Below are positions 42,852 to 57,447 of a stretch of 64,000 nt of DNA, piece by piece. Under the pieces are notes generated by a model that saw only the letters and a program-made list of their open reading frames with translations, was not told the DNA's origin and searched no databases. A program made the position numbers and the translations under genes. Each line of letters opens with the position of its first letter. Position 1 is the first letter of the stretch. Origin of the DNA: Actinopolyspora lacussalsi subsp. righensis. Its GTDB lineage: Bacteria; Actinomycetota; Actinomycetes; Mycobacteriales; Pseudonocardiaceae. The stretch spans positions 62,001 through 126,000 of the forward strand of contig NZ_FPAT01000013.1 in assembly GCF_900116555.1 (NCBI RefSeq). The letters run 5' to 3'.

Positions 42852-43433
42852 TCAGCGGCTGGTGTCGACCCTGCCGAAGTTGAGATGCGCGCGCGAGGGC
42901 GTGGGGCCGCGCTGGCCCTGGTACCGGGAACCGGCCGCCTTGCTGCCGTAGGGGTGTTCGGCCGGACTGGAGAGGCGGAACAGGCAGAGCTGGCCGATCT
43001 TCATGCCCGGCCAGAGGGTGATGGGCAGGTTCGCGACGTTGGACAGCTCCAACGTGATGTGCCCGCTGAAGCCGGGATCGATGAATCCGGCGGTGGAGTG
43101 GGTGAGCAGGCCGAGCCTGCCCAGGGAGGACTTGCCCTCCAGGCGGCCCGCCAGGTCGTCGGGAAGGCGAACCGTCTCGTAGGTGGAGCCGAGCACGAAC
43201 TCGCCCGGATGGAGGACGAACGCGTCGTCGTCGGAGTGCTCGACCAGCGAAGTCAGGTCGTCCTGCTGCAGCGAGGGGTCGATGTGGGTGTACTTGGAAT
43301 TGTCGAAGACCCGGAAGAACCGGTCCAGCCGAACGTCGATGCTCGACGGCTGGATCAGCGCGTCGTCGAACGGATCGAGTTCGAGGCGGCCCTCGTCGAG
43401 CTCTTTACGCAGGTCGCGGTCACTGAGCAACAC
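42852..43433 (-). CDS. dcd: dCTP deaminase
   Basis: A 193-aa trimeric dUTPase-fold enzyme with the Dcd/dCTP-deaminase signature: [70 protein letters not shown] and a C-terminal [14 protein letters not shown]. It converts dCTP to dUTP (or directly to dUMP in bifunctional actinobacterial forms). It is divergent from the tRNA-Gly gene 80 bp away, a stable chromosomal neighbour of the island. Confidence 0.96.
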
Positions 43434-43513
43434 GGAAACAGCGTATCGGGTGGGTGGGTGAACATCGCCGTTGGCCGCCGTGCTAGGCTTAATTACGTCG
43501 CATTGAGGGCGAT

Positions 43514-43587
43514 GCGGGTGTAGTTCAATGGCAGAACATCAGCTTCCCAAGCTGAGAACGCGGGTTCGATCCCCGTCACCCGCTCCA
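43514..43587 (+). tRNA. tRNA-Gly (anticodon CCC)
   Basis: Acceptor stem GCGGGTG pairs with CACCCGC, the D-arm holds TAGTTCAATGGCAGAAC, the anticodon loop TTCCCAA gives CCC, the T-arm is GGGTTCGATCCCC, and the 3' end is TCCA. It is intact. Its 3' half from the anticodon loop is the left copy of the island's 60-bp direct repeat. Confidence 0.95.
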
Positions 43588-43603
43588 ACGGTGAAGGCCC
43601 AGG
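43544..43603 (+). repeat. Island attachment-site repeat, left copy
   Basis: 60 bp from the anticodon loop of tRNA-Gly through the start of its terminator are identical to 55490-55549. Integration into the 3' half of a tRNA gene that leaves the tRNA intact at one end is the classic outcome for tyrosine-recombinase elements. Confidence 0.9.
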
Positions 43604-43637
43604 CCAGGAACTTCCGGGTTCCGCCTGGGCCTTTTTC
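43594..43637 (+). terminator. tRNA-Gly terminator
   Basis: AAGGCCCAGGC and GCCTGGGCCTT form an 11-bp stem followed by TTTTT, a textbook intrinsic terminator. A nearly identical copy occurs at 55540-55583. Confidence 0.92.
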
Positions 43638-43725
43638 GTGCGCGAAGGTTGGCGGCCTGCGGCAGCAAGAACCGGCATGGTGCAGCTCCGTGGCGAAGCT
43701 CGTCTCGACTGGTCCGGGAGCGGCT

Positions 43726-44097
43726 TCAGTCCGCGAGGGCCGAGGACTCCGGCCGCACCACGAACTCGGATACCGCTGTATCCACGGTTTCCTTGAGCCG
43801 CAACAGGTTGGTACGGCTCATCGTGAGCACGATCGGGGTTCGCGCGCCGATGTAGAGATCGGCGAGGTTGAACCGGCGCCACGTCTCACCAATCAACGAG
43901 GTGCGATCGACGATCAACAACCGCTTGGCGCGGTCCAGCGGGAACGCCACACCTTCGAGCTGCTGCTTCGCGGCGGGACGCGTTGTCGCCGTCACCTCGG
44001 AACATCGACAGGGCTGGGGCGTCGTCGCGCCCGCTCCCGGATCCGTTTCGTCCGGCCGTCCCGGAACGGACTCAGTGGACTCTCGCCTCAAAGACAA
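43726..44097 (-). CDS. Hypothetical island protein, 123 aa
   Basis: The C-terminal half (RLLIVDRTSLIGETWRRFNLADLYIGARTPIVLTMSRTNLLRLKETVDTAVSEFVVRPESS) is regular and protein-like; the N-terminal half is basic and rich in Arg/Thr. Its last ~35 codons recur, about 75% identical at protein level, at 55674-55786 beyond the right attachment repeat, so it is an island-end gene. No family recognised. Confidence 0.55.
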   Translation of the reverse strand: MSLRRESTESVPGRPDETDPGAGATTPQPCRCSEVTATTRPAAKQQLEGVAFPLDRAKRLLIVDRTSLIGETWRRFNLADLYIGARTPIVLTMSRTNLLRLKETVDTAVSEFVVRPESSALAD

Positions 44098-44378
44098 TGA
44101 CGCCTCCGCTCAACAACTACGCTTTCCGCTCGTGCTTCCCGTTGCCCGGCGATCGGGCGGAGCCATCCTGAGACCAGCGCTTCCGCGAACCACTCGCTGA
44201 GTGCCATCACCTCGCGCACTTGGTGGGTGAGGTCGTTCACCAGCCGATTCCGTTCGGGATCACTCTCTCCCAGGAGAGGCGGCGTCGATCGCCGAACCGT
44301 ACGAACTCGCTCCACCAAATCTTCCAGCTCTTGCTCTCGAACCTTCGCCTCCGGGCGAGAAGAGCGCTCTTCTGACAT
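44088..44378 (-). CDS. Small hypothetical island protein
   Basis: About 96 aa from Met at 44378 (MSEERSSRPEAKVREQELEDLVERVRTVRRS...), rich in charged residues and probably helical. It is divergent from the GntR gene across a region with repeated CTGGCTAG boxes, so it is likely under that regulator. It overlaps the next minus-strand gene by 10 bp. Not recognised. Confidence 0.5.
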   Translation of the reverse strand: MSEERSSRPEAKVREQELEDLVERVRTVRRSTPPLLGESDPERNRLVNDLTHQVREVMALSEWFAEALVSGWLRPIAGQREARAESVVVERRRHCL

Positions 44379-44427
44379 CAGGCAACCCCGTTCGGAAGCT
44401 GTGCAGCTACTCAATCAACATGAACAA

Positions 44428-44463
44428 GCTAGCTAACCTGGCTAGCCATGTCAATCTGGCTAG
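44428..44463. promoter_or_regulatory. Putative GntR operator array
   Basis: GCTAGC occurs at 44428 and 44441 with a 7-bp spacer, and CTGGCTAG repeats at 44438 and 44456 (18-bp period), in the divergent space between the small island gene and the GntR gene. Confidence 0.6.
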
Positions 44464-44496
44464 GTACTAGACGGGGTTGAGCTCTAACCTGAGCAC

Positions 44497-45339
44497 ATGA
44501 GCCTTGATCCCGACGATCCTCGCCCGCCTTATGTGCAGGTAGCGAGCGCGCTTCGAGCGGCGATCCTCACGCGGACCTATCAGCCAGGGGACCGGCTGCC
44601 CTCCGGCGCCGAGCTGGGCAGACAATACGGCGTCGCTCGCATGACGGCGCAGCAGGCTCTACGGGTACTGCGCGAGGAAGGGCTGGTCACCTCGCGGCAG
44701 GGAAGCGGCGTGTTCGTGCGGGAGCGCACCGAACGGCCGGTCGGGCTGCGCCCACACATCGAACGCGCCTTCGAAGCCGAGCACATCTCGATCGACTTCG
44801 CCGGGTTCTCCGGCGAGACACTGCACGGCGCGCTCCAGGAACCGCTGGACAAGATCCGGGTGGGGCGGCTGACGCCGCAGTCGCTGCGGATTCGGATGCT
44901 GTTGCCGGACACACGGAACCCGATGCCGCTGCCCTGCAAAGTCGACGGTTTGGAGGACAGCCCGGCTTTCCGCGCACGGGCCGACGGCATCATGCGCAGG
45001 CACACCCAGGCGATCATGGCTTCGGTGCGAGAGCTCGGCTCGTTCGGTCTGGTGCCGGAGACTTCCGCCGAGGTACGGCTGCATCCGACCGCGCCGCTGT
45101 TCAAGCTCTACGTGCTGAACAACTCCGAGATCTTCTTCGGTTTCTACCCGGTTCGCGAGCACGTCGTTGCGCTGGAAGGAGAGGACACACCGGTCTACGA
45201 CCTCATGGGCAAGGACGCGACGCTGTTCCAACACGCCGCGGACGCGGACGAGGAGTTGACCGGCAGCCAGTACGTCAAGCAGTCGCAACTGTGGTTCGAG
45301 TCGATGTGGGCCACCGTCAGCCGCGAGATCCAACCATGA
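44497..45339 (+). CDS. GntR-family regulator (HutC/KorSA-like)
   Basis: A 280-aa GntR protein. HTH PPYVQVASALRAAILTRTYQPGDRLPSGAELGRQYGVARMTAQQALRVLREEGLVTSRQGSGVFV, followed by a UTRA-like domain. GntR proteins of this size control transfer and replication genes on actinomycete integrative elements (KorSA type) and sit near the att site, as here. It overlaps the following HAD gene (ATGA). A repeated box upstream is probably its operator. Confidence 0.85.
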   Translation: MSLDPDDPRPPYVQVASALRAAILTRTYQPGDRLPSGAELGRQYGVARMTAQQALRVLREEGLVTSRQGSGVFVRERTERPVGLRPHIERAFEAEHISIDFAGFSGETLHGALQEPLDKIRVGRLTPQSLRIRMLLPDTRNPMPLPCKVDGLEDSPAFRARADGIMRRHTQAIMASVRELGSFGLVPETSAEVRLHPTAPLFKLYVLNNSEIFFGFYPVREHVVALEGEDTPVYDLMGKDATLFQHAADADEELTGSQYVKQSQLWFESMWATVSREIQP

Positions 45340-46028
45340 GTGAGCACGGCACCGACCAGCAGCGGTTGCGCGAGATCCTCGCGGCGACCTCGTGCGTCAT
45401 GCTCGACTTCGACGGACCCCTCTGCGCCGTATTCGCGGATCTGGGAGCTTCGACGGTTGCCGCCCGCGCGCTCGATGCGATCCGGCAAGCCGGGTATGCC
45501 GACGTCGCGCGGCGGTGCGAAACGAGTGATCCGTTGGATCTACTGGAATCGATCGCCGCCGAGTACCCCGAACTCGTGCCGGATGTCGATGCGGTGGTCA
45601 GCGATGCCGAGAACGAAGCCGTTTCCAACGCGGCCTCGACGCCGGGAGTTGTCGAGCTGATCGAACGCTGCCACGCTTCCGGGCGGTCGCTGTGCATCGT
45701 CAGCAACAATGCCGAATCCGCCGTGCGTGCCTATCTGGCAGAGTACGGGCTTACCCGCAAGGTGGATGCCATCGCGGCACGTCGACCGGACGACGCCGCT
45801 CACCTGAAGCCGGATACGCGGCTCCTACGGCGTGTGGCCGAAGCAACCGGGAGCAGCCCCGCCGCCTGCACGCTCATCGGGGACTCTCCGAGCGACATCA
45901 AGGCCGCGCACGCCTTCGGCGCCCACGCGATCGGCTACGCGAACAAACCCGGCAAGTTTGTGAAGCTCACCAACGCCGGGGCCGACACCGTGGCAGAAAA
46001 ACTGGAACTCATCACGAGTGAGCTGTAG
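45336..46028 (+). CDS. HAD-family hydrolase
   Basis: A 230-aa HAD phosphatase: motif I VMLDFDGPLC, motif II CIVSNN, motif III HLKPDTRLL, and motif IV TLIGDSPSDIKAAHAFGAHAIGYAN. Its start overlaps the GntR stop. GntR-HAD pairs occur repeatedly on actinomycete mobile elements; the substrate is unknown and could be a nucleotide or sugar phosphate. Confidence 0.9.
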   Translation: MSEHGTDQQRLREILAATSCVMLDFDGPLCAVFADLGASTVAARALDAIRQAGYADVARRCETSDPLDLLESIAAEYPELVPDVDAVVSDAENEAVSNAASTPGVVELIERCHASGRSLCIVSNNAESAVRAYLAEYGLTRKVDAIAARRPDDAAHLKPDTRLLRRVAEATGSSPAACTLIGDSPSDIKAAHAFGAHAIGYANKPGKFVKLTNAGADTVAEKLELITSEL

Positions 46029-46613
46029 TAGCCGAGCAGCATGGCGTTCACCCGCACAGTTGGACACAACGTTTGAAAGCCTGGGTACACGATGATCGAC
46101 AAGGTCGCATGGATCAGACTCGAGAAAAGCCTTTCGATTTGCAGCCCGCGTGTAAGTCACACGTCCTCACCCCGTCAGGTCAGGAACGATCAGCCCCAGC
46201 CAAGGGAGCAAGCCTGTTACCAGAGAGCCCCTCGACCTCCGCGATTGCCCCATGCCCAGACGCATCGGACGAGGAGCCACCGCACACAGCATTGGGACGA
46301 AGCCCCTACGTGGTAGCTGCCTCAGCGCATACTCCTCCGCCGAGAGTAGATGCTAAGGGAACCGGCTGCTCTGACGCACCAGCCCGGAGCTCTCATCAGG
46401 ACTCATCTTGACAGCCATGGTGAAGACCAAGATCAAATAGTCCGCTGACCAGCATCGATACTGCTCGGCGATCGCGCCTCACGCGGCCCGAGGTCACTGG
46501 CCTGGAACGATGTCGTGGCCTCCACGTATGCTCTGCTGAGGTCGGTCGAAATGCCTCGACAGCTGGCATCGACCCCTAGAGGCATGATTAGTCACGTGTT
46601 GTGAACTGGAGTA
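46029..46613. other. Gap between HAD and methyltransferase genes
   Basis: 585 bp with no convincing gene. Base composition falls from ~65% to ~55% GC here, marking the border between the GntR/HAD module and the AT-richer restriction module. It must hold the promoter of the methyltransferase operon. Confidence 0.5.
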
Positions 46614-47675
46614 ATGGTGGACGACCAGCAACCCGCAATGGAGGCGCCTTTGAACACTACTGGCCAGGACGCATCCGGTACCTCCGTCCGCCCCCCTGGA
46701 CGCGCGTCCATCGCCAACGGCCAACTCAAGGACACGCCAGCGAACCGCGCCCTACATCCTACCGTCACACCAGATTCCATCTTCAGCGCACCTTCCTTGA
46801 TAGACCATGCCTACTATGCCGACACAAAAGCTGTCATCTTCAACGAAGACATTCGAACTGGGCTTCGTCGGCTCCGTGACTCCAACCTAATGGTGGATTG
46901 CATAGTCACCTCGCCTCCTTATTACGGACAACGTGACTATGGCATCGACGGCCAGCTCGGGCTTGAAAGTCACCCCAAGGACTTTATAGACAACCTGTCA
47001 GAAATATTCTCGCTATGCTGGGATGTACTAAACGAAACTGGGTCACTTTGGATCAATATTGGAGACACCTATTGGAGCGGAAAAGGGGCCCATAAAAGCG
47101 GCGAGACAAAGCAAGGAGCCCGCCGCTTCGGTCTAAGGCCACAAGACCGCCCCGGTGACGGAGGCTGGGCCCGACCTAAACAGCAGCTCCTAGTTCCGCA
47201 CCGATTGGCGATAGCTCTGCAAGATGCCGGATGGTTGGTCCGCAACGATAATGTGTGGGTAAAATCGAACCCAGTACCTGACCAAGTTAGAGATCGATGC
47301 TCTGTTTCGCATGAATACATATTTCATCTCACAAAGAGCAGATGGTACTATTTTGATCGGACAGATGTTGGACGTACACAGAAATCCGGTCGGGTTCTAC
47401 CCCCTCTGGACACGTGGGCAGCAAAACCTTCGTCTGGTGCAGGAAAGCACCGTGCTGCCTTCTCCGAAGAACTGGTAAGGATTCCAATCTTAACTACCAC
47501 TCCACCTGGCGGAATTGTCCTCGACCCATTTAATGGTTCCGGCACTTCCATGAGTTTCGCACGAAAGCAGGGTTATCGATCAATAGGAATCGAACTAAAC
47601 AAAGAGTACTGCGAACACGCCGTATCCCATATGAAAAACCTAGACTCCGAAGACACGTTAGACCTGGAGATATAG
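46614..47675 (+). CDS. DNA methyltransferase, beta class (N4-cytosine or N6-adenine)
   Basis: A 353-aa amino-methyltransferase. Catalytic motif TSPPYYGQRDY (~100) comes before the AdoMet-binding motif DPFNGSGTSMSFARKQGYRSIGIELNKEY (~305), the beta order. TSPPY is the form usual in N4-cytosine enzymes, though some adenine enzymes share it. DVLNETGSLWINIGDTY and DNVWVKSNPVPDQVRDRCSVSHEYIFHLTK are conserved family blocks. It starts a four-gene operon with an McrBC-like nuclease pair and should protect the host genome. Codon usage is clearly AT-richer than the chromosome. Confidence 0.93.
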   Translation: MVDDQQPAMEAPLNTTGQDASGTSVRPPGRASIANGQLKDTPANRALHPTVTPDSIFSAPSLIDHAYYADTKAVIFNEDIRTGLRRLRDSNLMVDCIVTSPPYYGQRDYGIDGQLGLESHPKDFIDNLSEIFSLCWDVLNETGSLWINIGDTYWSGKGAHKSGETKQGARRFGLRPQDRPGDGGWARPKQQLLVPHRLAIALQDAGWLVRNDNVWVKSNPVPDQVRDRCSVSHEYIFHLTKSRWYYFDRTDVGRTQKSGRVLPPLDTWAAKPSSGAGKHRAAFSEELVRIPILTTTPPGGIVLDPFNGSGTSMSFARKQGYRSIGIELNKEYCEHAVSHMKNLDSEDTLDLEI

Positions 47676-48350
47676 ATGCCTCTATATATCGCCAAACATA
47701 GTTTGAAGAAAGCTGTCGATAGACTCGGAACCAGCGCAGCCTCGGCGAATCTCGGTGACTATTTAATCTTCAAACGTGCACTTCAAAACAGAATCGCAGA
47801 AGCGCGCTACTCAGCACAACCCGCACCAGAAACTGTTGTCACCGGCACAAGATCATCCCACTACACTACCGCCATAAACGAATTTGCGCTTTGGGTTATT
47901 GATATCCCTCCATCGGACGTTGATAACCCATACTTCATCCCGTTCGGATCAACACGAGACAAGACTCGAGGATACCGGTCGGCAAAGTTCCCTTCAAATG
48001 GTTCCTCTGACACTGTCAGCCGATGGCAGCAACGAAGTAGAGCCCCGCTCCTCTCAGTCCCAAATACAAAACCCAAGGAGTATTACTTCGCAAATCCCAA
48101 AGCACACGATCTCGAATCATTTTTTATGCCTAGCGCGTCATCAGACTCTAGCGAAAATAAACCACAAATACTCGATTCAGCAATTTGGTGGTTTCGATCT
48201 ACAGATCTATATACCATATTTGATCACAATCCAACAGATGAGGAAGTTACTAACAAGTTCATCGATGACACAGGACTCAACGATAATGAAATTCGAGCGC
48301 TTTTTTCTTCAGACACTCCATTAGTTCATTTGGGGTATGACCCATCATGA
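47676..48350 (+). CDS. Unrecognised 224-aa protein of the restriction operon
   Basis: The ATG follows the methyltransferase stop with no gap, and its end lies 22 bp before the McrB-like start, so it is an integral operon member. The sequence has an N-terminal basic helical part (KHSLKKAVDRLG...FKRALQNRIAEARYSAQPAPETVVTG), aromatic-rich middle strands (FALWVIDIPPSDVDNPYFIPFGS) and an acidic end. No nuclease motif or HTH is evident. Since the McrB-like protein lacks a long N-terminal DNA-binding domain, this may supply target recognition. That is inference; no family is recognised. Confidence 0.8.
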   Translation: MPLYIAKHSLKKAVDRLGTSAASANLGDYLIFKRALQNRIAEARYSAQPAPETVVTGTRSSHYTTAINEFALWVIDIPPSDVDNPYFIPFGSTRDKTRGYRSAKFPSNGSSDTVSRWQQRSRAPLLSVPNTKPKEYYFANPKAHDLESFFMPSASSDSSENKPQILDSAIWWFRSTDLYTIFDHNPTDEEVTNKFIDDTGLNDNEIRALFSSDTPLVHLGYDPS

Positions 48351-48372
48351 CAGTGCGCTTAGGGAGACCCAC

Positions 48373-49584
48373 ATGACGGTCGTTTATGCCGACCAACCGG
48401 CTGCACCTGAAGACTATCTGCCACCGGCGCCACAGTCCCAGCATTCAACGAAGCCGAAGCAACTATTAGAAGCCACTCTACAACGATACAGCGAAGGTAT
48501 CGATCACGTAGTCGACTACTTGTCAAAAATTGGATTCGTCTTCGAACCGTGGCAAGTGTCGGCATTTGTTACCGCAGTTCGGACAAAGCCATTCGTAATT
48601 CTAGCGGGTATATCCGGCACTGGCAAGACACAGCTCACTAAGCTGGTTGCCAACGCGACCGGAAGTAGGTGCTACACGATCCCAGTTCGTCCAGACTGGA
48701 ATGACAGTAGCGATCTACTCGGCTTTGAACGAATCGATGGATCTTTTCAGCCAGGACCTCTTCTGCGGATAGCACGCGAAGCAACCGATGACCCGCACAC
48801 GCAATACTTTGTGGTTCTCGATGAGATGAATTTAGCCCGCGTAGAATACTACATGGCCGAGGTTCTCAGCACACTCGAGGATCGTTCCTGGGAGGAGGGG
48901 AGAACTATTTCTTCATCGTTTTTCCCTCATCTTGCAGGAGGGGAATACGATGTCTGGAGCTCCGTCGGTCTGCCTGGCAACCTGTGCCTAGTTGGGTCTG
49001 TCAACATGGATGAGACCACACACGGGTTCTCAAAAAAGGTACTGGACCGATCTTTTGTTATTGAGTTTTCAAAAATCGACTTGTCCTCCATCCCTCAGGC
49101 AGTCACAGAGCCTGCACAGGCTAAACGCTGGGCGTCTCAAGACTGGTGTCCACGCGCGGTGTCGCTTGCTCAGCATCCCCTCGTGTCACATCCTGATGTT
49201 CCGTCTATAATTGAAACCTTAATACACGTGAATTCACTTCTTGAGCCTGCTCAGTTGCAGTTTGGATATCGAGTTCGCGACGAAATTATTATGTTTTGTC
49301 TTGCAGCAAACGATTGTTCTGAATCGTTCTCAACAAGTGATTCAGGTGCAGTTGACCCACTAGACCTAGCTATTGCCATGAAGGTCTTGCCTAGAATACA
49401 AGGCGCTGGCACGACTGTGCGCAAAGTACTTGATAACCTACGCTCCTGGGCCTCGCCAGGCATTGACGACCCTGCCGGTAGCACTACAGATACTAGCGAG
49501 CCAGGGTTTCCATTCTGCAGTGACCGTATTGAATTGATGCTGCGTCGACTTCACGAAACCGGATTTACCAACTATTGGCTCTGA
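48373..49584 (+). CDS. McrB-like AAA+ GTPase/ATPase
   Basis: A 403-aa AAA+ protein with the McrB pattern: Walker A GISGTGKTQLTK (~78), a long insert with PVRPDWNDSSDLLGF, Walker B YFVVLDEMNLARVEYY (~149) and VGSVNMDETTHGFSKKVLDRSFVIEF (~205-230), the McrB sensor-1/Arg region. Only ~70 residues precede Walker A, so the DUF3578-like methyl-DNA-binding domain of E. coli McrB is missing. I chose ATG 48373 with AGGGAG upstream over ATG 48337, which overlaps the previous gene. It should form the ring motor driving the McrC-like nuclease. Confidence 0.92.
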   Translation: MTVVYADQPAAPEDYLPPAPQSQHSTKPKQLLEATLQRYSEGIDHVVDYLSKIGFVFEPWQVSAFVTAVRTKPFVILAGISGTGKTQLTKLVANATGSRCYTIPVRPDWNDSSDLLGFERIDGSFQPGPLLRIAREATDDPHTQYFVVLDEMNLARVEYYMAEVLSTLEDRSWEEGRTISSSFFPHLAGGEYDVWSSVGLPGNLCLVGSVNMDETTHGFSKKVLDRSFVIEFSKIDLSSIPQAVTEPAQAKRWASQDWCPRAVSLAQHPLVSHPDVPSIIETLIHVNSLLEPAQLQFGYRVRDEIIMFCLAANDCSESFSTSDSGAVDPLDLAIAMKVLPRIQGAGTTVRKVLDNLRSWASPGIDDPAGSTTDTSEPGFPFCSDRIELMLRRLHETGFTNYWL

Positions 49585-49588
49585 ACAT

Positions 49589-51430
49589 ATGCCTACTACT
49601 CATATTCTACATATATCTGCGCCCTTTGTCGAATTCGAACTGCGAGGTCCGACACACTCCGATATTACTTCCGTAGAGCGCCTATCCGGGCCGGTCACAC
49701 AACTTCATGTCGATTCCTCAACGGGTTCTGCCGATGTAGTCGTCCTTGGTGAAACTGCGGCGACTGACCCTGGTGCCAGCAAACTCTTTACTGGTCCACC
49801 GCTATTTGAAGACACCACCTATCGTATCAGGGCAAAATCAAAAATTGCTGGCCAGCTACCGCAGCTCGTGCACCGTGACCCTCAATTACTTCGAAACATC
49901 GACACTTTTTCGGACGATCTGACGTCCATGGGTACAATCAACTTTAATCGCCAAGTTGGGGTTTCAAGACTAGATGTCCAGGTCGGGCACGAGATGCTTC
50001 GAATCACGTTGGAGATATTCCCAACAAAGATCGATTATGCAACTGACTACCAGACTATGGTAACGGACGTAGCATCAACAGTAAGATCGCTTGCTCTGGA
50101 GTATCTCCGTGCCACATATCGTACAGGTACTGCGTATGATACGGACGATACTAGCTCGCTTGATTGGCTTACTCTCGTCCGGAATGAGATCGATACAATC
50201 GAGCGAGCAATTCACTATATCAATACTCATCCAGAACGTACGCTAGTACACGAAATTGCAAACACACCCATAAGTCGCATCCGGAAGGCCGACTCTGCGG
50301 TAAGAAGAGCTATAATCAAGGGATCAGGTCGTGGTCCCAGTATCCCCGTCTCAGCAGTAGGCCAGGTGCGTAGTGTTCTGCCATCCGTACAGAATACCGA
50401 AACTGCCGATACGAACGAGCATAGATGGATCCGACTTAACCTCCTGCTCATCATTGATCGACTATCGGAAATACATCGTCATCTCCTCACAGAGGTTCAG
50501 CAGCACCAGAAAGACAGTAACACTGTCTCCGTTCGCCGCGCAAAAGAGGAGAGCGAAGTCGCGGAATTCCTCCATCGCGTCAATCTCCTTGTCGACCTTC
50601 CAATATTCGCTGGGATTAATAAGCACCCGCCGCCTGGATTCTCATCATTGGCGCTGCACAATTCGACCGGCTATGGAGATGCCTATAGGGCGATCACGGC
50701 ACTTCGACTCGGTCTTTCCACAAACGGAACAGGAATTGACTTGTCCGTAATGGATGTTCACGAGCTTTACGAAACGTGGTGCTTTATCGAAGTTGTACGG
50801 ATAATTCTTAGCAAGACAGGAACTCAAGGGGATCTGTCAGAACTCCTAGCAGTGGAAGAATCAGGGATCCGCATCCGTCTAGCACACGGGAAACGCAGCT
50901 CGGTAGCATGTGAGTTTTCGCATATCAATCTAGAAGTGACTTACAATCAACGGTATCCAACATTGACCGGTGAGCAACGGCCAGATATCGTCCTTCGCAT
51001 TCAACATAGGACATGGCCAGAATTGGTTATTCTTCTCGATGCAAAGTATCGCCTAGATAATTCCCAGTCCTACAGGCAGCAATTCGATTGCGTTGGGCCC
51101 CCTGTTAAAGCAATTAATGCCTTGCATCGATATCGCGACGCGATAGTAGTCGGACCCCCTGGGGAGCAGGGCCGGCCAGTCGTTAAGGGCGCAGCGTTGT
51201 TTCCAATGTCACGTGAAGAATCGAAAGACTTTCAGGGATCGCGTCTTCAGCGCGCGCTAGAGCACCTAGGTATTGGCGCCCTCCCTTTTCTGCCCGGAAA
51301 CACCAACTTCCTCGAAGAGTGGCTGGATCAATTAATTCAGCTCCCTCCTGAGGAACTAGCTGTACCAGGTCTTCCTCATATTGGACTGCAGGAAGTCAGT
51401 CGTCGTACAAAGCTTACGGGCGGTGGCTGA
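49589..51430 (+). CDS. McrC-like DUF2357 PD-(D/E)XK endonuclease
   Basis: A 613-aa protein starting 4 bp after the McrB-like stop. The N-terminal half is a DUF2357-type region; near residue 460-490 RPDIVLRI...ELVILLDAKYRLD provides the PD...DxK nuclease core, and HRYRDAIV follows as in McrC/DUF2357 nucleases. The ELYETWCFIEVVRIIL helix (~395) is a family hallmark. It is the likely cutting subunit activated by the McrB-like motor. It ends 76 bp before an insertion sequence. GC is near 50%. Confidence 0.88.
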   Translation: MPTTHILHISAPFVEFELRGPTHSDITSVERLSGPVTQLHVDSSTGSADVVVLGETAATDPGASKLFTGPPLFEDTTYRIRAKSKIAGQLPQLVHRDPQLLRNIDTFSDDLTSMGTINFNRQVGVSRLDVQVGHEMLRITLEIFPTKIDYATDYQTMVTDVASTVRSLALEYLRATYRTGTAYDTDDTSSLDWLTLVRNEIDTIERAIHYINTHPERTLVHEIANTPISRIRKADSAVRRAIIKGSGRGPSIPVSAVGQVRSVLPSVQNTETADTNEHRWIRLNLLLIIDRLSEIHRHLLTEVQQHQKDSNTVSVRRAKEESEVAEFLHRVNLLVDLPIFAGINKHPPPGFSSLALHNSTGYGDAYRAITALRLGLSTNGTGIDLSVMDVHELYETWCFIEVVRIILSKTGTQGDLSELLAVEESGIRIRLAHGKRSSVACEFSHINLEVTYNQRYPTLTGEQRPDIVLRIQHRTWPELVILLDAKYRLDNSQSYRQQFDCVGPPVKAINALHRYRDAIVVGPPGEQGRPVVKGAALFPMSREESKDFQGSRLQRALEHLGIGALPFLPGNTNFLEEWLDQLIQLPPEELAVPGLPHIGLQEVSRRTKLTGGG

Positions 51431-51506
51431 CGAGAGTACGTTACGATCCACTATGTCGTGCTTCGTGATATATAGTCGAGACAGTCGAATTCATGGCAAG
51501 TCAGGT

Positions 51507-52485
51507 ATTGAGGTGATCTCAGCGAGTTTTAGGTCGTTGGGTGTTCGAGTTGGGTGAGAACGAGTGCGGCTTGGAGGATGGGGCCGATCTTTCTGGGGCT
51601 GGCGGTGATGTGTCCCATGGCGCGCCATCGCTGTGTGAGCAGGGCGAAGCCGCGTTCGCCCAGGCTGCGGAGTCCACGGAGCAGGGCGTTGTAGGCGCGG
51701 TTGTCGGCGTCGAGGACCTGGGTGACGGGTGGTTGTTTGATGGGGGTGTGCACGCCGATGCCGGTGCCGTCGTAGCCACCATCGGCTAGGGTCGGCAGCC
51801 CGTGAGCTGCGGCTGCGTACAACGCGGGAAGCACGTGTTCGTGGGCTGCGGTCAGGTCGTGGGTCGAGTCGGGTTCCTCGTCGGAGACCCACAGTGGAAA
51901 TCCGTTGGGCGCTGACAGGGCCTGAATCGTGTCACCGTGCTCGCCGGTCTTGCCGGAGTAGGACAGGTCGATGGTTGTTCCCTGAACGCTGGTGGTTTTC
52001 TCGGCGAGACGATCGGTGGTGACCACCGTGCCGTCGAGGATGACGGAGGCATGGCCGTCCTCGTGGGCCTGCTGCAGCGCCTGATGGAGATCCGGGGCCT
52101 GGTCAGCGAGTACGGTGATGACCTCATCGACATACCGATACGCCGTGGCCCGCGAGACCTGGTGATCACGACCCAGCTTGTCCGGATTGGTGTGGTCGCG
52201 AAGCCACCGTAGTCCCAGCACAGCCTGCCAAAAGCAGGAAAGCGCCCGCGTGTGGGCACGGGTACCGCGGCGCCGGCGTTCAGCGTGCAGCAGCCACGCC
52301 AGATGACCGGCAAGGTCACGCGACACATCGAGGATGGCAGTATGAGCAATCACGGAGAGCCTTTGGTCGTCGGGCCTGATCTTGTGGCGAGACCAGCCCT
52401 ACCAGGGGCTTTCCGCCTTCCTTCCAGCGCATCCGCACGCAACCGCCACATGCGCCTGCTTCTACCTCGCTGAGATCACCTCAAT
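51507..52485 (-). mobile_element. IS5-like insertion sequence, intact (979 bp)
   Basis: ATTGAGGTGATCTCAGCGAG at the left end is perfectly inverted at 52466-52485. GGT flanks both ends (51504-51506 and 52486-52488) as a 3-bp target duplication. Inside is one intact transposase gene. GC returns to ~63% within the element, unlike the AT-rich genes on both sides. Confidence 0.9.
51529..52353 (-). CDS. IS5-family (DDE_Tnp_4) transposase
   Basis: A 274-aa DDE transposase. HTH region VSRATAYRYVDEVITVLADQ, catalytic Asp in HASVILDGTVV, second Asp in LPTLADGGYDGTGIG and the Glu in RSLGERGFALLTQRW. Length and motif spacing look complete, so the element is probably active or recently active. It lies on the strand opposite to the defence genes. 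Confidence 0.92.
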   Translation of the reverse strand: MIAHTAILDVSRDLAGHLAWLLHAERRRRGTRAHTRALSCFWQAVLGLRWLRDHTNPDKLGRDHQVSRATAYRYVDEVITVLADQAPDLHQALQQAHEDGHASVILDGTVVTTDRLAEKTTSVQGTTIDLSYSGKTGEHGDTIQALSAPNGFPLWVSDEEPDSTHDLTAAHEHVLPALYAAAAHGLPTLADGGYDGTGIGVHTPIKQPPVTQVLDADNRAYNALLRGLRSLGERGFALLTQRWRAMGHITASPRKIGPILQAALVLTQLEHPTT

Positions 52486-52777
52486 GGTTCCATTCATGGA
52501 TAGTATCTGACAAGGAGACCACTATCTACCGTCTTCTCAGGATGATCTCGATCAGTAACCATACCACGACATCTCTCACAGCATGCTCCCAATCAAAACG
52601 GATCTTATCCCGAGCGGGGACCTGGTACGACGAAGAACTCGATCGATCATCTGCCTCCAAACTCGACTAATCGGCCCCAGCTCCGTCTAATAACCACCGA
52701 CAAGTCGCACAGATCAACTCAGCGCGTCATCGATCACGTATCTAATCGATCACTACTACCAGAGTTTCTGAGTTACT

Positions 52778-54316
52778 ATGGTGGAATTAGCACCCAACCT
52801 CCAACTCAAGACCACAGGAGTCAAGTTGTCGGAATATCGAAGCGAATTTCGCGAAAGTGAGCTACAGAATCTCGAAAACAAAGTATCACGTTCCGACTAC
52901 GGAAAATACCTTAAAAAAGTAACCCTTAAGCAAATCAGGGGTTTTACCAACCGCGAGGTTACTTTTGATTTTCCTGTAACCGCTCTAATCGGCCCAAACG
53001 GAGGCGGAAAAAGTACTATACTGGGCGCTGCCGCTCTTCCATATAAGGCGGTGAAGCCTGGAACATTCTTTGCCAAGAGCGGGAAATATGATTCCTCCAT
53101 GAAAGACTGGACCATAGAATATGAACTAATCGACAAGCAATTGATGGCCGGCATCCATGTACAAAGGACAGCACGTTTTCCACAAGCACGTTGGGATCGT
53201 AAATCAACTGAACGTGACGTCATTATATTCGGAGTTTCACGTACTATTCCAGCAAACGAACGCAAAGATCTTACCAATAATGCCATAGGTAATTATTTTG
53301 CGGCGGATTCGGAGGTTTCCCTTGCCGAACCAGTCACGACTGCCGTTCAAAAAATCCTCGGAAAGAGCGTGGATGAATACAGCAAACTTCACGTAGATGC
53401 AACTGGAAAAGTGTCCATGTTTGCTGGTAAGGACACGAACGGGGAACGCTATTCCGAATTCCACTTCGGTGCAGGCGAGGCGAGCGTTATTAGAATCGTG
53501 TCCGCCATCGAAGAAGCTGATAAAAACACCCTGATCCTTATCGAAGAAATCGAAAACGGGCTGCATCCGGTCGCAACCAAACACATGGTCGAATATCTCG
53601 TCGAAGTAGCCGAGAAAAAGTCCGCGCAAATCATATTTACGACGCATTCCAATGATGCGCTGGTTCCACTCCCATCGTCAGCAATTTGGACTGCCTACAA
53701 CGGGGAAGTAAATCAAGGCCGACTTGACATAAACACTCTACGCGCAATTACGGGGCAAGTATCAGCAACCCTTGCGATTTTTGTGGAAGATACGTTCGCT
53801 AAAAAACTCGTGAGTACGGCCCTGCGGCATTATGGCGGGGTGGAAATGGACGCGATAGAGATCCATGCTGTAGGCGGGGCCGAACGAGCTATTAAAATCA
53901 GCGAGGGCCACAACGCGACACCTTCCACTAAATATCCTTCTATTTGCATACTTGATGGCGACAAGAAGAATCAAGAAAATCCGGCAAGCAACATTTATAC
54001 TTTGCCAGGAGATAACCATCCGGAACTACACATACTTCATCGTGTCATCGACAATATCGAGCACAATATCGCGTTGTTGACGGTATCCATGCAATTTCCT
54101 TTGTCAAAACAATCTTTCGTAGAAACTGTGATACAACAAAGAGCATCAACAAATCGCGACATTCACTTGATTTTTCAGCAAATAGGCGCTGATTTGAGTT
54201 TCACTTCCGAACAGGTTGTTGCGGGAGCATTCTTGAGCGTATGGGCTCAAGAAAACCCAGCCGAACTGTCGGAACTAATAGCTCCGTTCGCGCAACTCCT
54301 TCCCGGTTCCAAGTAA
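52778..54316 (+). CDS. OLD-like ATPase with Toprim domain
   Basis: A 512-aa protein. ABC-type ATPase head: FDFPVTALIGPNGGGKSTILGAA (Walker A, ~72), signature-like FHFGAGEAS (~228), Walker B NTLILIEEIENGLHP (~250) and the H-loop IFTTHSNDAL (~287). A Toprim module follows: IFVEDTFAKKLV (Glu ~334), AVGGAERAIK and ICILDGDKK (DGD ~391). This is the class 1 OLD/GajA-like arrangement of phage-defence nucleases. It is ~48% GC and stands alone: no UvrD-like helicase partner of the Gabija type follows, so it is a solo OLD-like protein. Confidence 0.85.
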   Translation: MVELAPNLQLKTTGVKLSEYRSEFRESELQNLENKVSRSDYGKYLKKVTLKQIRGFTNREVTFDFPVTALIGPNGGGKSTILGAAALPYKAVKPGTFFAKSGKYDSSMKDWTIEYELIDKQLMAGIHVQRTARFPQARWDRKSTERDVIIFGVSRTIPANERKDLTNNAIGNYFAADSEVSLAEPVTTAVQKILGKSVDEYSKLHVDATGKVSMFAGKDTNGERYSEFHFGAGEASVIRIVSAIEEADKNTLILIEEIENGLHPVATKHMVEYLVEVAEKKSAQIIFTTHSNDALVPLPSSAIWTAYNGEVNQGRLDINTLRAITGQVSATLAIFVEDTFAKKLVSTALRHYGGVEMDAIEIHAVGGAERAIKISEGHNATPSTKYPSICILDGDKKNQENPASNIYTLPGDNHPELHILHRVIDNIEHNIALLTVSMQFPLSKQSFVETVIQQRASTNRDIHLIFQQIGADLSFTSEQVVAGAFLSVWAQENPAELSELIAPFAQLLPGSK

Positions 54317-54346
54317 AATTGCCGAATTTGGCTCTACAGGATCAAG

Positions 54347-54369
54347 GCGCGCCGCCTGCGGCGGCGCGC
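54347..54369. terminator. Hairpin downstream of the OLD-like gene
   Basis: GCGCGCCGCC and GGCGGCGCGC form a perfect 10-bp stem with a TGC loop, 31 bp after the stop. The rest of the 370-bp gap to the HNH gene stop shows no gene. Confidence 0.75.
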
Positions 54370-54602
54370 TCCGGGACGACTTGTCATGGCGCTTGCGCGT
54401 GCGGCCTGGCGGCCGTTCGCGCGCCAGCCAGCCGCCCGGAGAAGCGGGACTCGACGCAGGACTAGAACGAACCCCATGCACGATCGGGCGCTGTCGCACA
54501 TTCCCTCTGTATCGATCGCCGTGTCTGCCGCAGCCGTGTACCGCTGAGCCCGGCGATCGCTGCCGCGACTGTGGACATCGGGGGCTCGCTGCGCGAGCCG
54601 CG

Positions 54603-54622
54603 CTGACCACAGCCTTGCCACA
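54603..54622. repeat. 20-bp direct repeat, left copy
   Basis: CTGACCACAGCCTTGCCACA recurs exactly at 55796-55815, flanking the HNH gene and the right attachment repeat. Confidence 0.85.
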
Positions 54623-54686
54623 GATCCGCGTCCGTACTAAAATCATGCGTTACCTGTTTAGGCAAGCTTATCCAAACTAGGCACCA

Positions 54687-55412
54687 CTAGTTCGTGTCTG
54701 CCTGCCTATGTGCTGCAATTGCCTGCCGTGTAATGTGCTCCCAAGTTCCCTCAGCTATTCCGACACCAAAATGTGTCGATATATCCATGTCGTTCATAAC
54801 TGAACAGATCAGCCCCTTCAGATACTCCATGCCTTCACTTTCGAATATCGCCATAAGACCCTTTAACTCCTCCTCTGACAACTTAGTCAAGGCTCTGACG
54901 TACTTAGCCCCTGGACCCGTGTATTCACGCAATTCCGGCTCTTTCCCTGTAGAAATAGCAAAGAGAACAGCCAAAGAGCCACTGCGTGGATGTTTTGCGA
55001 CCCATGACCAAAAAATATCTGACTCGGAAGTGTCTGGGGATTGCTCATGGCATCTCTTACACAAGATTGCGAAATTTTGAGGATCATTAGATCCGCCTAG
55101 TGACCAAGGAACAACATGTGCACGCTGAAGGTTTTTGGTTGATATCTTCTTCTTGATCTCTTTCTTGTAATGATCAAGCGGACAATATCCGCACGCGAAG
55201 CATTCAGGTTCACCAGCGTCCATCAACGGGATCTGATCGAAGCCAGGTAGCTTCCTAGCCTCCCAATACGTTGCGATAGTTTCCATACTCGGCATCACGG
55301 CACGACTGGCTCGCATGAGCTCTCCAACGGCTCGAGATCGACTTTGCGCATCCAAGCTACCGAGCAGGTACGACAGGTGAGCACTCCGCCTGCTGGGCCA
55401 CACGCGGGCCAT
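54687..55412 (-). CDS. HNH endonuclease
   Basis: A 241-aa protein with an HNH module: CFACGYCPLD (zinc Cys pair, ~73), QRAHVVPWSLGGSNDPQNFAILCKRCHEQSPD (~95-125) giving His, Asn and the second Cys pair. The flanking N- and C-terminal helical parts are unrecognised. At about 47% GC it is foreign-looking. It is transcribed toward the OLD-like gene and starts only 78 bp from the attachment repeat, a position where integrative elements carry integration or defence genes. Confidence 0.88.
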   Translation of the reverse strand: MARVWPSRRSAHLSYLLGSLDAQSRSRAVGELMRASRAVMPSMETIATYWEARKLPGFDQIPLMDAGEPECFACGYCPLDHYKKEIKKKISTKNLQRAHVVPWSLGGSNDPQNFAILCKRCHEQSPDTSESDIFWSWVAKHPRSGSLAVLFAISTGKEPELREYTGPGAKYVRALTKLSEEELKGLMAIFESEGMEYLKGLICSVMNDMDISTHFGVGIAEGTWEHITRQAIAAHRQADTN

Positions 55413-55489
55413 TAAGGGCGGTCAATGACGGTCACCACAGACCACCTTGCGCCCCAGGGCAGCAGCCGTGCGCGGAGACGAGTATCGGA

Positions 55490-55549
55490 TTCCCAAGCTG
55501 AGAACGCGGGTTCGATCCCCGTCACCCGCTCCAACGGTGAAGGCCCAGG
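55490..55549 (+). repeat. Island attachment-site repeat, right copy
   Basis: 60 bp identical to 43544-43603. The 5' half of the tRNA is absent, so this is a displaced tRNA 3' fragment, marking the right end of an 11.9-kb island. Similarity continues at about 80-85% to 55786. Confidence 0.9.
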
Positions 55550-55673
55550 GCAGGAACTTCCGAGTTCCGCCTGGGCCTTTTTCGTGCGCGGGGTTGGCGG
55601 CCTGCGGCAGCGGGGTGCCGGTGCAGGGCGGCTCCGTGCCGAGGATGGTCCGCCGATCCACCGGAAGCGGCTT

Positions 55674-55786
55674 TCAGTCCGCGAAGCCCGAGGACTCCGA
55701 CCGCACCGCGAGCTCGGACACCGCAACATCGATGGTTCCCTTGAACCGCAGCAGGTTGGGGCGGCTCATCGTGAGCACGATCGGGG
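55674..55786 (-). pseudogene. 3' fragment homologous to the gene at 43726
   Basis: Reads PIVLTMSRPNLLRFKGTIDVAVSELAVRSESSGFAD then stop, matching the end of the left gene. Upstream coding sequence is missing, cut at the 20-bp direct repeat at 55796. Confidence 0.75.
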
Positions 55787-55795
55787 CGAACCGCT

Positions 55796-55815
55796 CTGAC
55801 CACAGCCTTGCCACA
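55796..55815. repeat. 20-bp direct repeat, right copy
   Basis: Exact repeat of 54603-54622, adjoining the truncated gene fragment; it marks a deletion or insertion junction. Confidence 0.85.
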
Positions 55816-55844
55816 CATCAACCGTGTCACCAACCGGGATCTCG

Positions 55845-56162
55845 CTACGGGTGACGGGCTCGGTTGTCGCAGTCCTTACAGCGTTGATTCGCCCGGAGCT
55901 CGACGTTGGCGCCGGCGTTCGCGGCGATGACGTCGCCGTTCCCGAGGCGCTCCCAGGCACGCGGAACGTCGCGGATCTCTCCCCAGTCGGAGTAATCGGG
56001 ATGGTCACCCTTGTGGAAGCAGCCGGGAAGATGCGCCATCCCCGCCGGGCTGATGAGGATCAGAGCAGGCGCGGGCTGCCCAGCGGGCTTGGGTTTCCGA
56101 GTGTGTTCGCACTGCCCGACAGGCAGATCGCATCGCTCGCAGCGAGACTCACCAGACGACAT
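55845..56162 (-). CDS. Small Cys-rich protein (mobile-element type)
   Basis: 105 aa from Met at 56162: ESRCERCDLPVGQCEHTRKPKPAG supplies two Cys pairs and a His, and the end CKDCDN supplies another pair, suggesting a zinc ribbon. HLPGCFHKGDHPDYSDWGEI is conserved-looking. Proteins with the CERCDLPxxQCEH start are frequent on actinomycete phages and integrative elements. It lies just outside the right attachment repeat, so it may be left over from another insertion. Confidence 0.65.
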   Translation of the reverse strand: MSSGESRCERCDLPVGQCEHTRKPKPAGQPAPALILISPAGMAHLPGCFHKGDHPDYSDWGEIRDVPRAWERLGNGDVIAANAGANVELRANQRCKDCDNRARHP

Positions 56163-56250
56163 GGCCCCATACTGCGCTTCCAGGCATGACCTTGTGTGCC
56201 ATTCGCGATGATCTGCCCCATCAATACCGGATTCGCCGTGAACTTCCGGG

Positions 56251-56354
56251 CCACGCACGGGCCACTAAGCTCGCTCGCCCCCGGTCAATGACGCTCAGAC
56301 CGGGCCGTCTCGCACCGCAGGACAAGAGCCATGCGCGGACACGAGTATCGGCTT
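56251..56354. repeat. Degenerate second copy of the island's right-end sequence
   Basis: This stretch aligns with 55398-55489 (start of the HNH gene through GAGTATCGG). It includes GTGGCCCGTGCGTGGCCC, matching the HNH start codons, followed by an early stop, and ends GAGTATCGGCTTGCCAA, similar to the attachment core start. Confidence 0.65.
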
Positions 56355-56403
56355 GCCAACCAAGGAGCTAAAGACACTGCCTCACTGACGTGCCGAATAC
56401 GGC

Positions 56404-57447
56404 TCAGCCGTATTCGGCGAACAGGCGTCCGTTCACGCCGTCGACCGTCATGAAGCCGCCGTAGGGGACGATCCACTGTGGTCTGGTATGCCCGAAGGGC
56501 GGACCGACCACGACGACCGCGTCCGGGCTGTAGGCGTGCACCACGGAAACCGCGGTGTCGCGCTGCTCCGCTCGGTTCTCCCGCCGCTGCTCGGCCGTGG
56601 GCCGCACGTTGAAGTTGGAGGCCGGCGGACGGGCGACGACTACCGCGTCAACCGCACGCAGGATCCCGCGTTCCCCGAGAGAACGGAGGATCCAACCGAA
56701 CTCCCGCGCCGCGATCAATTCCTCCGACGTCTCCAAAAGCAGCACACCGCCGTCGAGTACGGCCGGATCAACCGGAAAACGCCCGGCCGTGAGGAGCCAC
56801 TGCAGCACCTCGACGCACCCGCCCCACGTCCTGCCGGTGCGGGATTCGGCAGGACCGGCCCAGGTCCAGGGCTCGGTCGGCTCGCGCTCGCCGAATTCGT
56901 CGAGTGCGCGGGGATCGTTCCAGTCGTGCCCGATGTCCTCGGACTCACCCGGCTCGGTGAGCTCGATGCGTTCGCCGGTGAGGAGCGCGGCCCGCAGCGA
57001 CCGCTCGTGGACCGGATCGACGTGCGGTCCCGGCCCCAGCTGAACCTGGGTCGAGCCGCCGTAGTAGCCGGGCACCCCCAGCGTCCAGAGCCGATTCAGC
57101 AGGTTCGTGTTGTCGCTGTACCCGAGAAAGGGTTTGGGATCGTTGGCGACGAGTTCGGTATCCAGGTGCGGCACGACCGTGATCTGGTCCTCCCCACCAC
57201 TCGTGGTCAGCACCGCCCGGATCTCCGGATCGGCGAAGGCAGCGTTGAGGTCCGCCGCGCGTTCGCGCGCGGTGGCGTCGAGCTTCCGAGTGGTCGGAAA
57301 CTCGACGGGCACGAGACCCGTGATGTCCCGCAGCCGTCGCAACGCCTGCTCGTGCACGGCGGAACCGACCGCGGGAGCAGCGAAGGACGGCGACAGCACA
57401 GCGATCCTGTCGCCGGGCCGGGCCTTCCGAGGGTGGACGAACTCCAT
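56404..57447 (-). CDS. LD-carboxypeptidase / S66-family peptidase (MccF-like)
   Basis: A 347-aa S66 peptidase. ARPGDRIAVLSPS starts the N-terminal domain, IRAVLTTSGGEDQITVVPHLD includes the nucleophile region, PFLGYSDNTNLLNRL is the family signature, and the C-terminal domain has GGCVEVLQWLL, LLLETSEE and GPPFGHTRPQWIVPYGG. Members cut L,D-bonds in peptidoglycan stems or inactivate microcin C-like antibiotics. Start ATG 57447 was preferred over an upstream Met at 57486 because the family begins close to ARPGD. Confidence 0.9.
   Translation of the reverse strand: MEFVHPRKARPGDRIAVLSPSFAAPAVGSAVHEQALRRLRDITGLVPVEFPTTRKLDATARERAADLNAAFADPEIRAVLTTSGGEDQITVVPHLDTELVANDPKPFLGYSDNTNLLNRLWTLGVPGYYGGSTQVQLGPGPHVDPVHERSLRAALLTGERIELTEPGESEDIGHDWNDPRALDEFGEREPTEPWTWAGPAESRTGRTWGGCVEVLQWLLTAGRFPVDPAVLDGGVLLLETSEELIAAREFGWILRSLGERGILRAVDAVVVARPPASNFNVRPTAEQRRENRAEQRDTAVSVVHAYSPDAVVVVGPPFGHTRPQWIVPYGGFMTVDGVNGRLFAEYG

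What the first reader, a model, noticed from the sequence alone, without database searches (positions are those of the whole stretch)
46614..51430. Methyltransferase - 224-aa protein - McrB-like - McrC-like operon: candidate new restriction architecture
E. coli McrBC has no methyltransferase and recognises DNA by an N-terminal domain of McrB. Here the AAA+ protein lacks that domain, a beta-class methyltransferase heads the operon, and a 224-aa protein of no recognised family stands between them. LlaI/LlaJI-type systems couple methyltransferases to McrBC-like motors, so the closest known relatives are there, but a separate recognition subunit would be new. AT-rich composition and island context support recent acquisition for phage defence.
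Basis: partly seen in the sequence, partly recalled or inferred. Interest (0 to 1): 0.85.

Follow-up and report, generated by a model that had tools for sequence, protein, structure and literature searches.

The report
Restriction operon with detached DNA-reader subunit
A bacterial restriction operon, probably anti-phage, keeps its likely DNA-reading part as a separate small protein, and relatives of that part are fused to two unrelated cutting machines while staying beside the same kind of protective methylase, which suggests a plug-in recognition module.

Summary
The four-gene operon is real: β-class N4/N6 methyltransferase (MTase), 224-aa protein, McrB-like AAA+, DUF2357/PD-(D/E)xK McrC-like nuclease, on a low-GC island flanked by direct repeats at a tRNA-Gly gene. 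A methylase beside McrBC-like genes is not new (LlaJI, PcaI; a methylase-linked NxD McrB branch is noted in print). New here is the 224-aa protein. [quoted passage not shown] The separate gene is thus a detached domain, and splitting or fusion recurred. Eleven of 39 genome loci of the same MTase clade carry a distant homologue (hhalign 98.5%; 20 shuffled controls ≤0.5%) at the front of a Septu PtuA ATPase, followed by PtuB, instead of McrBC. It was not detected in 62 more distant MTase loci. So the domain travels with one MTase clade and plugs into two unrelated engines. Most likely it reads the site that the MTase protects; DNA binding is inferred, not shown. AlphaFold2 is confident (pLDDT 92), without a Foldseek match in PDB. 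New variant of a known kind.

The parts
46614..47675 (+). beta-class DNA methyltransferase (predicted N4-cytosine or N6-adenine), 353 aa; motif IV TSPPY at 46908-46922, SAM motif DPFNGSGT at 47523-47546
   Evidence: PF01555 E 2e-42; motifs
47676..48350 (+). 224-aa protein: stand-alone version of the N-terminal (probable recognition) domain of the McrB-like protein
   Evidence: no known family; homologous to the N-terminus of fused McrB-like proteins and of PtuA-like proteins; AF2 pLDDT 92.1
47985..48014 (+). codons of KFPSNGSSDT, a well conserved polar stretch of the domain; candidate DNA-contact loop (inference)
   Evidence: pattern written after seeing the alignments: 32 of 33 type-A and 10 of 11 type-B domains, 0 of 50 control sequences
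48337..49584 (+). McrB-like AAA+ NTPase, 415 aa (alternative start 48373); Walker A 48607-48630, Walker B 48811-48831, NxD-type signature NMDE 49003-49014; DYLPPAP at 48412-48432 corresponds to the linker of fused relatives
49589..51430 (+). McrC-like nuclease subunit, DUF2357 + PD-(D/E)xK, 613 aa; catalytic region RPDIV 50978-50992 and LLDAKYR 51032-51052
   Evidence: PF09823 E 4e-44, PF04411 E 3e-31
43514..43587 (+). tRNA-Gly(CCC), probable integration site of the island
43538..43644 (.). left direct repeat (3' part of tRNA-Gly and downstream)
   Evidence: 107 nt, 96% to 55484-55590
55484..55590 (.). right direct repeat

Best explanation
This is a self/non-self restriction-modification operon of LlaJI type. 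The MTase marks a specific site in host DNA (inferred). The 224-aa protein is the detached N-terminal reader domain of the McrB-like motor: it binds the MTase's site when unmethylated and docks on the AAA+ ring (inferred). The AAA+ protein assembles and translocates on NTP hydrolysis (inferred from family), and the DUF2357/PD-(D/E)xK subunit cuts DNA (inferred from family and intact motifs). In most relatives found, reader and motor are one chain; here and in several other actinobacteria the chain is split at the interdomain linker, with the two genes overlapping or nearly so. Shown: gene content, homology of the 224-aa protein to the N-terminal domain of fused McrB-like proteins and of a Septu PtuA subtype, co-occurrence with one MTase clade, recurrent split/fusion on the trees. 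Not shown: DNA binding, the site, cleavage, phage defence.
For: Fused homologues in Rhizobium, Sinorhizobium and Thauera plasmids and in 21 of 26 type-A genome loci; separate in 5 of 26, in two near-identical M. abscessus plasmids and here. The domain (type A or B) is directly behind the MTase in 37 of 39 genome loci of the MTase clade (the others: L058 ends inside the MTase, L025 no partner); not detected in 62 more distant MTase loci, some of them on short contigs. MTase-stop to domain-start distance -32 to +56 nt, median +4, over 43 loci, starts set by alignment. The domain fronts a Septu PtuA in 10 loci and is a separate gene before it in L038: hhalign 98.5%, P 2.7e-15, 180 columns; 20 column shuffles <=0.5%; unrelated proteins <=3.4%. 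So MTase and reader are what the two engines have in common. Split junctions overlap by 4 bp (GTGA or ATGA) in L015, L016, L022 and, if TTG is the start, L017, arguing against frameshift errors. In LlaJI, R1 (McrB-like, unique N-terminal half) is the specificity subunit (PMC1459862 abstract).
Against: No DNA-binding fold was recognised: Foldseek found nothing at E<=0.001 in PDB or BFVD, nor in PDB for the type-B domain. P0002 is acidic (pI 6.0; the type-A family ranges 4.8-9.4). The domain diverges faster than the MTase: P0002 is 22-48% identical to other type-A domains and 18% over hhalign columns to type B, whereas the MTases stay 54-71% identical to P0001; a reader of one fixed site might be expected to be conserved. 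Three MTase-clade loci lack it without an obvious assembly reason (L025, L097, L098).
Confidence: 0.7

Rival explanations
1. Docking adapter: the 224-aa domain does not read DNA but binds the MTase protein, so that the MTase's own target-recognition region directs the McrB or PtuA engine to its sites.
For: Explains why the domain follows one MTase clade through two unrelated engines and why no DNA-binding fold is seen.
Against: In LlaJI the McrB-like subunit alone sets specificity (PMC1459862 abstract). A divergent homologue (L133) sits on an NxxD-type McrB whose neighbouring MTase is antisense; but that MTase is of the same Pfam family, so this is only weak evidence.
Confidence: 0.15
2. Modification-dependent (Type IV-like) system: it attacks DNA methylated by foreign enzymes, and the MTase is a bystander or regulator.
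For: E. coli McrBC is of this kind; AAA+ and DUF2357 parts are McrBC-like.
Against: MTase contiguous with the domain in 37 of 39 loci and kept when the engine differs; published MTase-linked McrBC-like systems (LlaJI, PcaI) restrict unmethylated DNA.
Confidence: 0.06
3. The split is a decayed or misassembled McrB gene, and the operon is inactive.
For: In the M. abscessus plasmids reader and motor lie in one frame, separated by a single stop; L038 (type B) likewise has an in-frame stop.
Against: On the AAA+ tree the best topology needs 4 changes and one split clade is rejected (AU p 0.019).
Confidence: 0.05
4. Chance neighbour or regulator with no part in restriction.
For: No known family.
Against: It is fused to the motor in 21 of 26 type-A genome relatives.
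Confidence: 0.02

Closest known systems
LlaJI (Lactococcus plasmid; M1, M2, R1, R2)
   Same: MTase genes beside a McrB-like GTPase subunit with its own N-terminal half and a PD-(D/E)xK subunit; R1 is the specificity subunit, unmethylated DNA is restricted (PMC1459862 abstract).
   Different: Two m5C MTases; recognition part fused. N-terminal parts of four other McrB-like proteins, taken as single sequences and including a Lactococcus plasmid one (L010, not verified to be LlaJI), show no relation to the 224-aa family.
PcaI (M.PcaI, PcaIA, PcaIB)
   Same: MTase + AAA+ GTPase + DUF2357 nuclease, restricts unmethylated DNA (PMC8989522 passages).
   Different: Dcm-homologous MTase for CCNGG; DNA-binding region fused to PcaIA.
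NxD-branch, methyltransferase-associated McrBC systems (Bell et al. 2024)
   Same: P0003 carries NMDE, an NxD signature followed by E, as that branch usually does (PMC11090510 section 7).
   Different: The paper names the methylase association but leaves it to a forthcoming publication; the parts I saw (12 passages and section 7) describe no separate reader gene and no link to Septu.
Septu, PADLOC PtuA model PDLC00270 + PtuB PDLC00348
   Same: In 10 of 11 type-B loci the ~620-aa protein matches PDLC00270 over its full length, in L038 the separate ATPase matches its positions 202-627; the HNH protein of L033 matches PDLC00348 (E 4e-66). The first ~200 aa are homologous to P0002.
   Different: Engine is an ABC/SMC-type ATPase + HNH, not McrBC; not present in the window.
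XcyI/Pac25I restriction-modification
   Same: Pac25I-annotated MTase (L011) 38% identical to P0001.
   Different: Partner is annotated as an XcyI-family restriction enzyme, unrelated to the 224-aa family (hhalign 0.2%, single sequence).

Membership tests
LlaJI-type restriction-modification | cognate MTase gene(s) in the operon | tested here: met
LlaJI-type restriction-modification | McrB-like NTPase plus DUF2357/PD-(D/E)xK subunit | tested here: met
LlaJI-type restriction-modification | N-terminal recognition region fused to the McrB-like subunit | tested here: not met
   separate gene in the window; fused in 21 of 26 type-A genome relatives
LlaJI-type restriction-modification | restricts unmethylated, spares methylated DNA | not testable with these tools
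   needs bench work
E. coli-type McrBC (Type IV) | known modified-base N-terminal domain on McrB, no cognate MTase | tested here: not met
   no Pfam domain on P0002 or on any of 28 members of its family, none N-terminal to the AAA part of P0003; MTase present
NxD-branch McrB | NxD signature, usually followed by E or D | tested here: met
   NMDE at P0003 223-226
NxD-branch McrB | placement in the McrB tree of Bell et al. | not tested
   their alignment was not at hand
Septu (type-B relatives, not the window) | PtuA + PtuB | tested here: met
   PtuA PDLC00270 in 11 of 11 type-B loci; PtuB against PADLOC only for L033, the other 10 by a session HMM built from nine of the eleven
Type I restriction-modification (separate specificity subunit HsdS) | HsdS/HsdM/HsdR homologues | tested here: not met
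   no such family among the rows for the four proteins; the resemblance is only in having a separate reader

The most novel reading that the evidence does not exclude
A portable DNA-reader module, specific for the site of one β-class MTase clade and with no recognised fold, has been plugged into two unrelated defence engines, McrBC and Septu, and in actinobacteria works as a free-standing specificity subunit of an NTP-dependent restriction enzyme. If so, some Septu systems are restriction-like systems gated by methylation, and engines can be exchanged under a constant MTase-reader pair.
Probability: 0.5. Interest if true: 0.82.

Novelty: new variant of a known kind. Interest (0 to 1): 0.63.

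Tried and rejected
Known DNA-binding fold for the 224-aa protein: none by profile against PDB sequences (best E 0.08, potassium-channel fragments, taken as chance) or Foldseek. No match does not prove a new fold; the second aligner was not available.

Site of the MTase: 38% identity to an annotated Pac25I methylase and a nearly fully methylated CCCGGG motif in the X. euvesicatoria strain of PMC8025778 (passages) are a lead only; nothing ties that motif to this clade.

Weak genome hits discarded: G070 (E 0.01, stop inside) and G678 (E 7e-5, a 70-aa frame with a stop, among housekeeping-like genes named by eye). G450 was kept as a divergent member (L133).

Single-domain queries: P0002, the L030 domain and alignment A6 gave no relative in viral contigs; P0002 gave none in phages; the L033 and L133 domains gave none in plasmids.

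In print: searches listed no paper that, as far as titles, abstract starts and the passages I opened show, joins this domain, McrBC and Septu. The library holds open-licence papers only, and most listed papers were not opened.

The AAA model was built with wrongly framed members and was replaced; one search failed on a file name and was repeated.
Full report
1. Observation. The operon is as described: MTase 46614-47675, 224-aa protein 47676-48350, McrB-like AAA+ 48337-49584, McrC-like 49589-51430, all on the + strand. Family scans identify genes 1, 3 and 4 and leave gene 2 without any hit (Pfam and NCBIfam to E 1, PADLOC to E 0.1). PADLOC's candidate model PDC-M26A matches gene 3, best stretch 37-184 to profile 285-433 of 724. 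Expected motifs of genes 1, 3 and 4 are present.

2. Setting. The genes have 45-53% GC against 68% for window 1-43500. A 107-nt repeat (96%) and a 114-nt repeat (86%), each spaced about 11.95 kb, flank the region; the left 107-nt copy overlaps tRNA-Gly(CCC) at 43514-43587. Searching seven genomes of the same genus, one of them the same species, with window 43000-56500 gave matches to the flanks and repeats, in some to the GntR/HAD stretch and in some to the transposase stretch, but none within 46.13-51.5 kb, where the operon lies (40 candidates per genome were scored, fewer than the first look found). P0002 also had no match in these seven. The site thus looks like a hotspot with changing cargo. 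The genome has one match to the AAA+ protein, itself.

3. What the 224-aa protein is. tblastn against 72,556 plasmid records found five records (E<=0.01). In two near-identical M. abscessus plasmids the order is MTase, separate reader ORF, AAA+, antisense ORF, DUF2357. In two Sinorhizobium and one Rhizobium plasmid, and in a Thauera plasmid found through the MTase, the P0002 relative is the N-terminal ~200 aa of a 671- or 672-aa protein whose C-terminal part is the AAA+ domain (alignment). The 224-aa protein is therefore the N-terminal domain of this McrB family as a gene of its own.

4. Census. A genome scan with the MTase alignment found 177 relatives, of which only the best 80 were kept (L015-L094); a viral scan gave 25. 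The 26 type-A readers had all been hit by an HMM of six sequences before they were added to the model. Of four viral loci at 54% or more, L096 is type A, L095 is cut by the contig end, L097 and L098 have no reader. In the 62 loci with more distant MTases (L052-L056, L059-L094, L099-L119; some on short contigs) no reader was detected. The system looks rare: P0002 matched credibly only its own genome among 397 of the order, and profile A5 its own and one divergent case among 396 of the phylum; in both searches only up to seven candidates per genome were scored in the rows shown, so misses are possible.

5. Second engine. In 10 of the 11 type-B loci the gene after the MTase encodes a 619-623-aa protein, in L038 two proteins; a ~210-aa HNH-like protein follows. 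All 11 match PADLOC PtuA PDLC00270, ten over its full length and L038's separate ATPase at 202-627; a second PtuA model without the N-terminal part, PDLC00307 (424 positions), matches the ten from residue 214-217 on. L033's HNH protein matches PtuB PDLC00348 (E 4e-66); Pfam sees AAA_21/AAA_15 in the L033 ATPase. The first ~200 aa align with the P0002 family over 180 columns (hhalign 98.5%, P 2.7e-15 for the single comparison). Controls: 20 column-shuffled versions 0.0-0.5%; PtuA core, PtuB, AAA+, McrC, MTase, XcyI, N-termini of four other McrB-like proteins and a GmrSD-like protein at most 3.4%. The type-A HMM by itself also hits 8 of 11 type-B loci, E 5e-5 to 7e-9. AlphaFold2 of the type-B domain (pLDDT 80.5, with weak stretches) and of P0002 (pLDDT 92.1, pTM 0.89) show a similar order of helices in the N-terminal and C-terminal thirds; this was compared by eye only. 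A stretch [K/R/...]-aromatic/His-x-[S/T]-[N/T/S/A]-G-x(2-3)-[T/K] recurs in 32 of 33 type-A and 10 of 11 type-B domains and in none of 50 control sequences, but the pattern was written, with loose first positions, after seeing the alignments.

6. Beyond the clade. It is followed by a McrC-like gene of the other Pfam family, PF10117 (E 3e-20), and an antisense N6_N4_Mtase gene (E 3e-39). So the domain family is wider than this clade.

7. Evolution. On the AAA+ tree (31 rows) the seven split rows need 4 changes, and holding them as one clade is rejected (AU p 0.019), though starred branches alone force only one change. On the MTase tree (49 rows, rooted on L052-L056) starred branches force at least 4 changes for the split label; type-B MTases lie inside a clade that also holds 15 type-A ones, mostly proteobacterial (99/98), as one group with weak support (60/78). 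The simplest reading is repeated fission or fusion and one exchange of engine under a kept MTase-reader pair. Long branches are present, so details are uncertain.

8. Mechanism. Junctions of split pairs overlap by 4 bp in L015, L016 and L022, in L017 if TTG is the start (otherwise +5); L004 has 0 nt, L057 +26 nt, the window -14 or +22 nt depending on the start. In six of seven split loci the motor begins near a [D/E/N]YLP motif (L017 has DWRP); fused plasmid proteins carry a YLP or YLN at the corresponding linker. This fits translational coupling of two chains that work as one. In LlaJI the McrB-like subunit alone determines specificity (PMC1459862, abstract and outline seen), and PcaI, a methylase + AAA+ + DUF2357 system, restricts unmethylated DNA (PMC8989522, passages). 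Hence the model: MTase protects, 224-aa protein reads, AAA+ moves, McrC-like subunit cuts. DNA binding and the site are inferred. That TSPPY suggests N4-cytosine is a recalled rule from no call. One listed abstract says that a Septu cuts tRNA-Tyr (PMC13096335, listing), so type B may be an abortive response triggered by unmethylated DNA (speculation).

9. Novelty. Methylase-linked McrBC-like systems are known, and the NxD branch to which P0003's NMDE points is named as methylase-associated in PMC11090510 (passages and section 7), with details left to a later paper. I found no text on a separate reader gene or on a reader shared with Septu in the searches named under Tried and rejected. PADLOC's PtuA model PDLC00270 already spans the type-B reader region without naming it. 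New variant of a known kind; the shared module is the interesting part.

Noticed in passing
window 52778-54316 (+) and 54690-55412 (-): Neighbouring ATPase matches PADLOC candidate HEC-04 over nearly its full length (E 5e-216), and next to it lies an HNH protein (HNH_5); the island carries a second candidate defence gene.
   Followed up: partly
window 43514-55819: Probable tRNA-Gly integration hotspot: genus relatives carry other sequence between copies of the same repeats. No integrase among the operon and the seven further ORFs scanned with Pfam; smaller ORFs were mostly not scanned.
   Followed up: partly
L052, L053, L055, L056: MTases of the nearest outgroup (47-49% identical) lie near a ~600-aa GmrSD_N protein (with HNH in three; L055's GmrSD_N match is below Pfam's cut-off), a third kind of partner for this MTase superfamily; no such gene was scanned in L054.
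   Followed up: partly
L133 853-2370, 2367-3614, 3626-4888: Divergent reader on an NxxD-type McrB with a PF10117-type McrC and antisense MTase.
   Followed up: partly
L005, L006, L007 upstream of the MTase: HigA-annotated HTH gene directly before the MTase in the three rhizobial plasmids, perhaps a controller gene; two small ORFs upstream of the window's MTase have no Pfam match.
   Followed up: partly
   Followed up: partly
L012 2418-7849: Caballeronia plasmid with annotated very-short-patch-repair nuclease, cytosine MTase, AAA+ and DUF2357 genes: a LlaJI/PcaI-like set with an unrelated N-terminal part.
   Followed up: no
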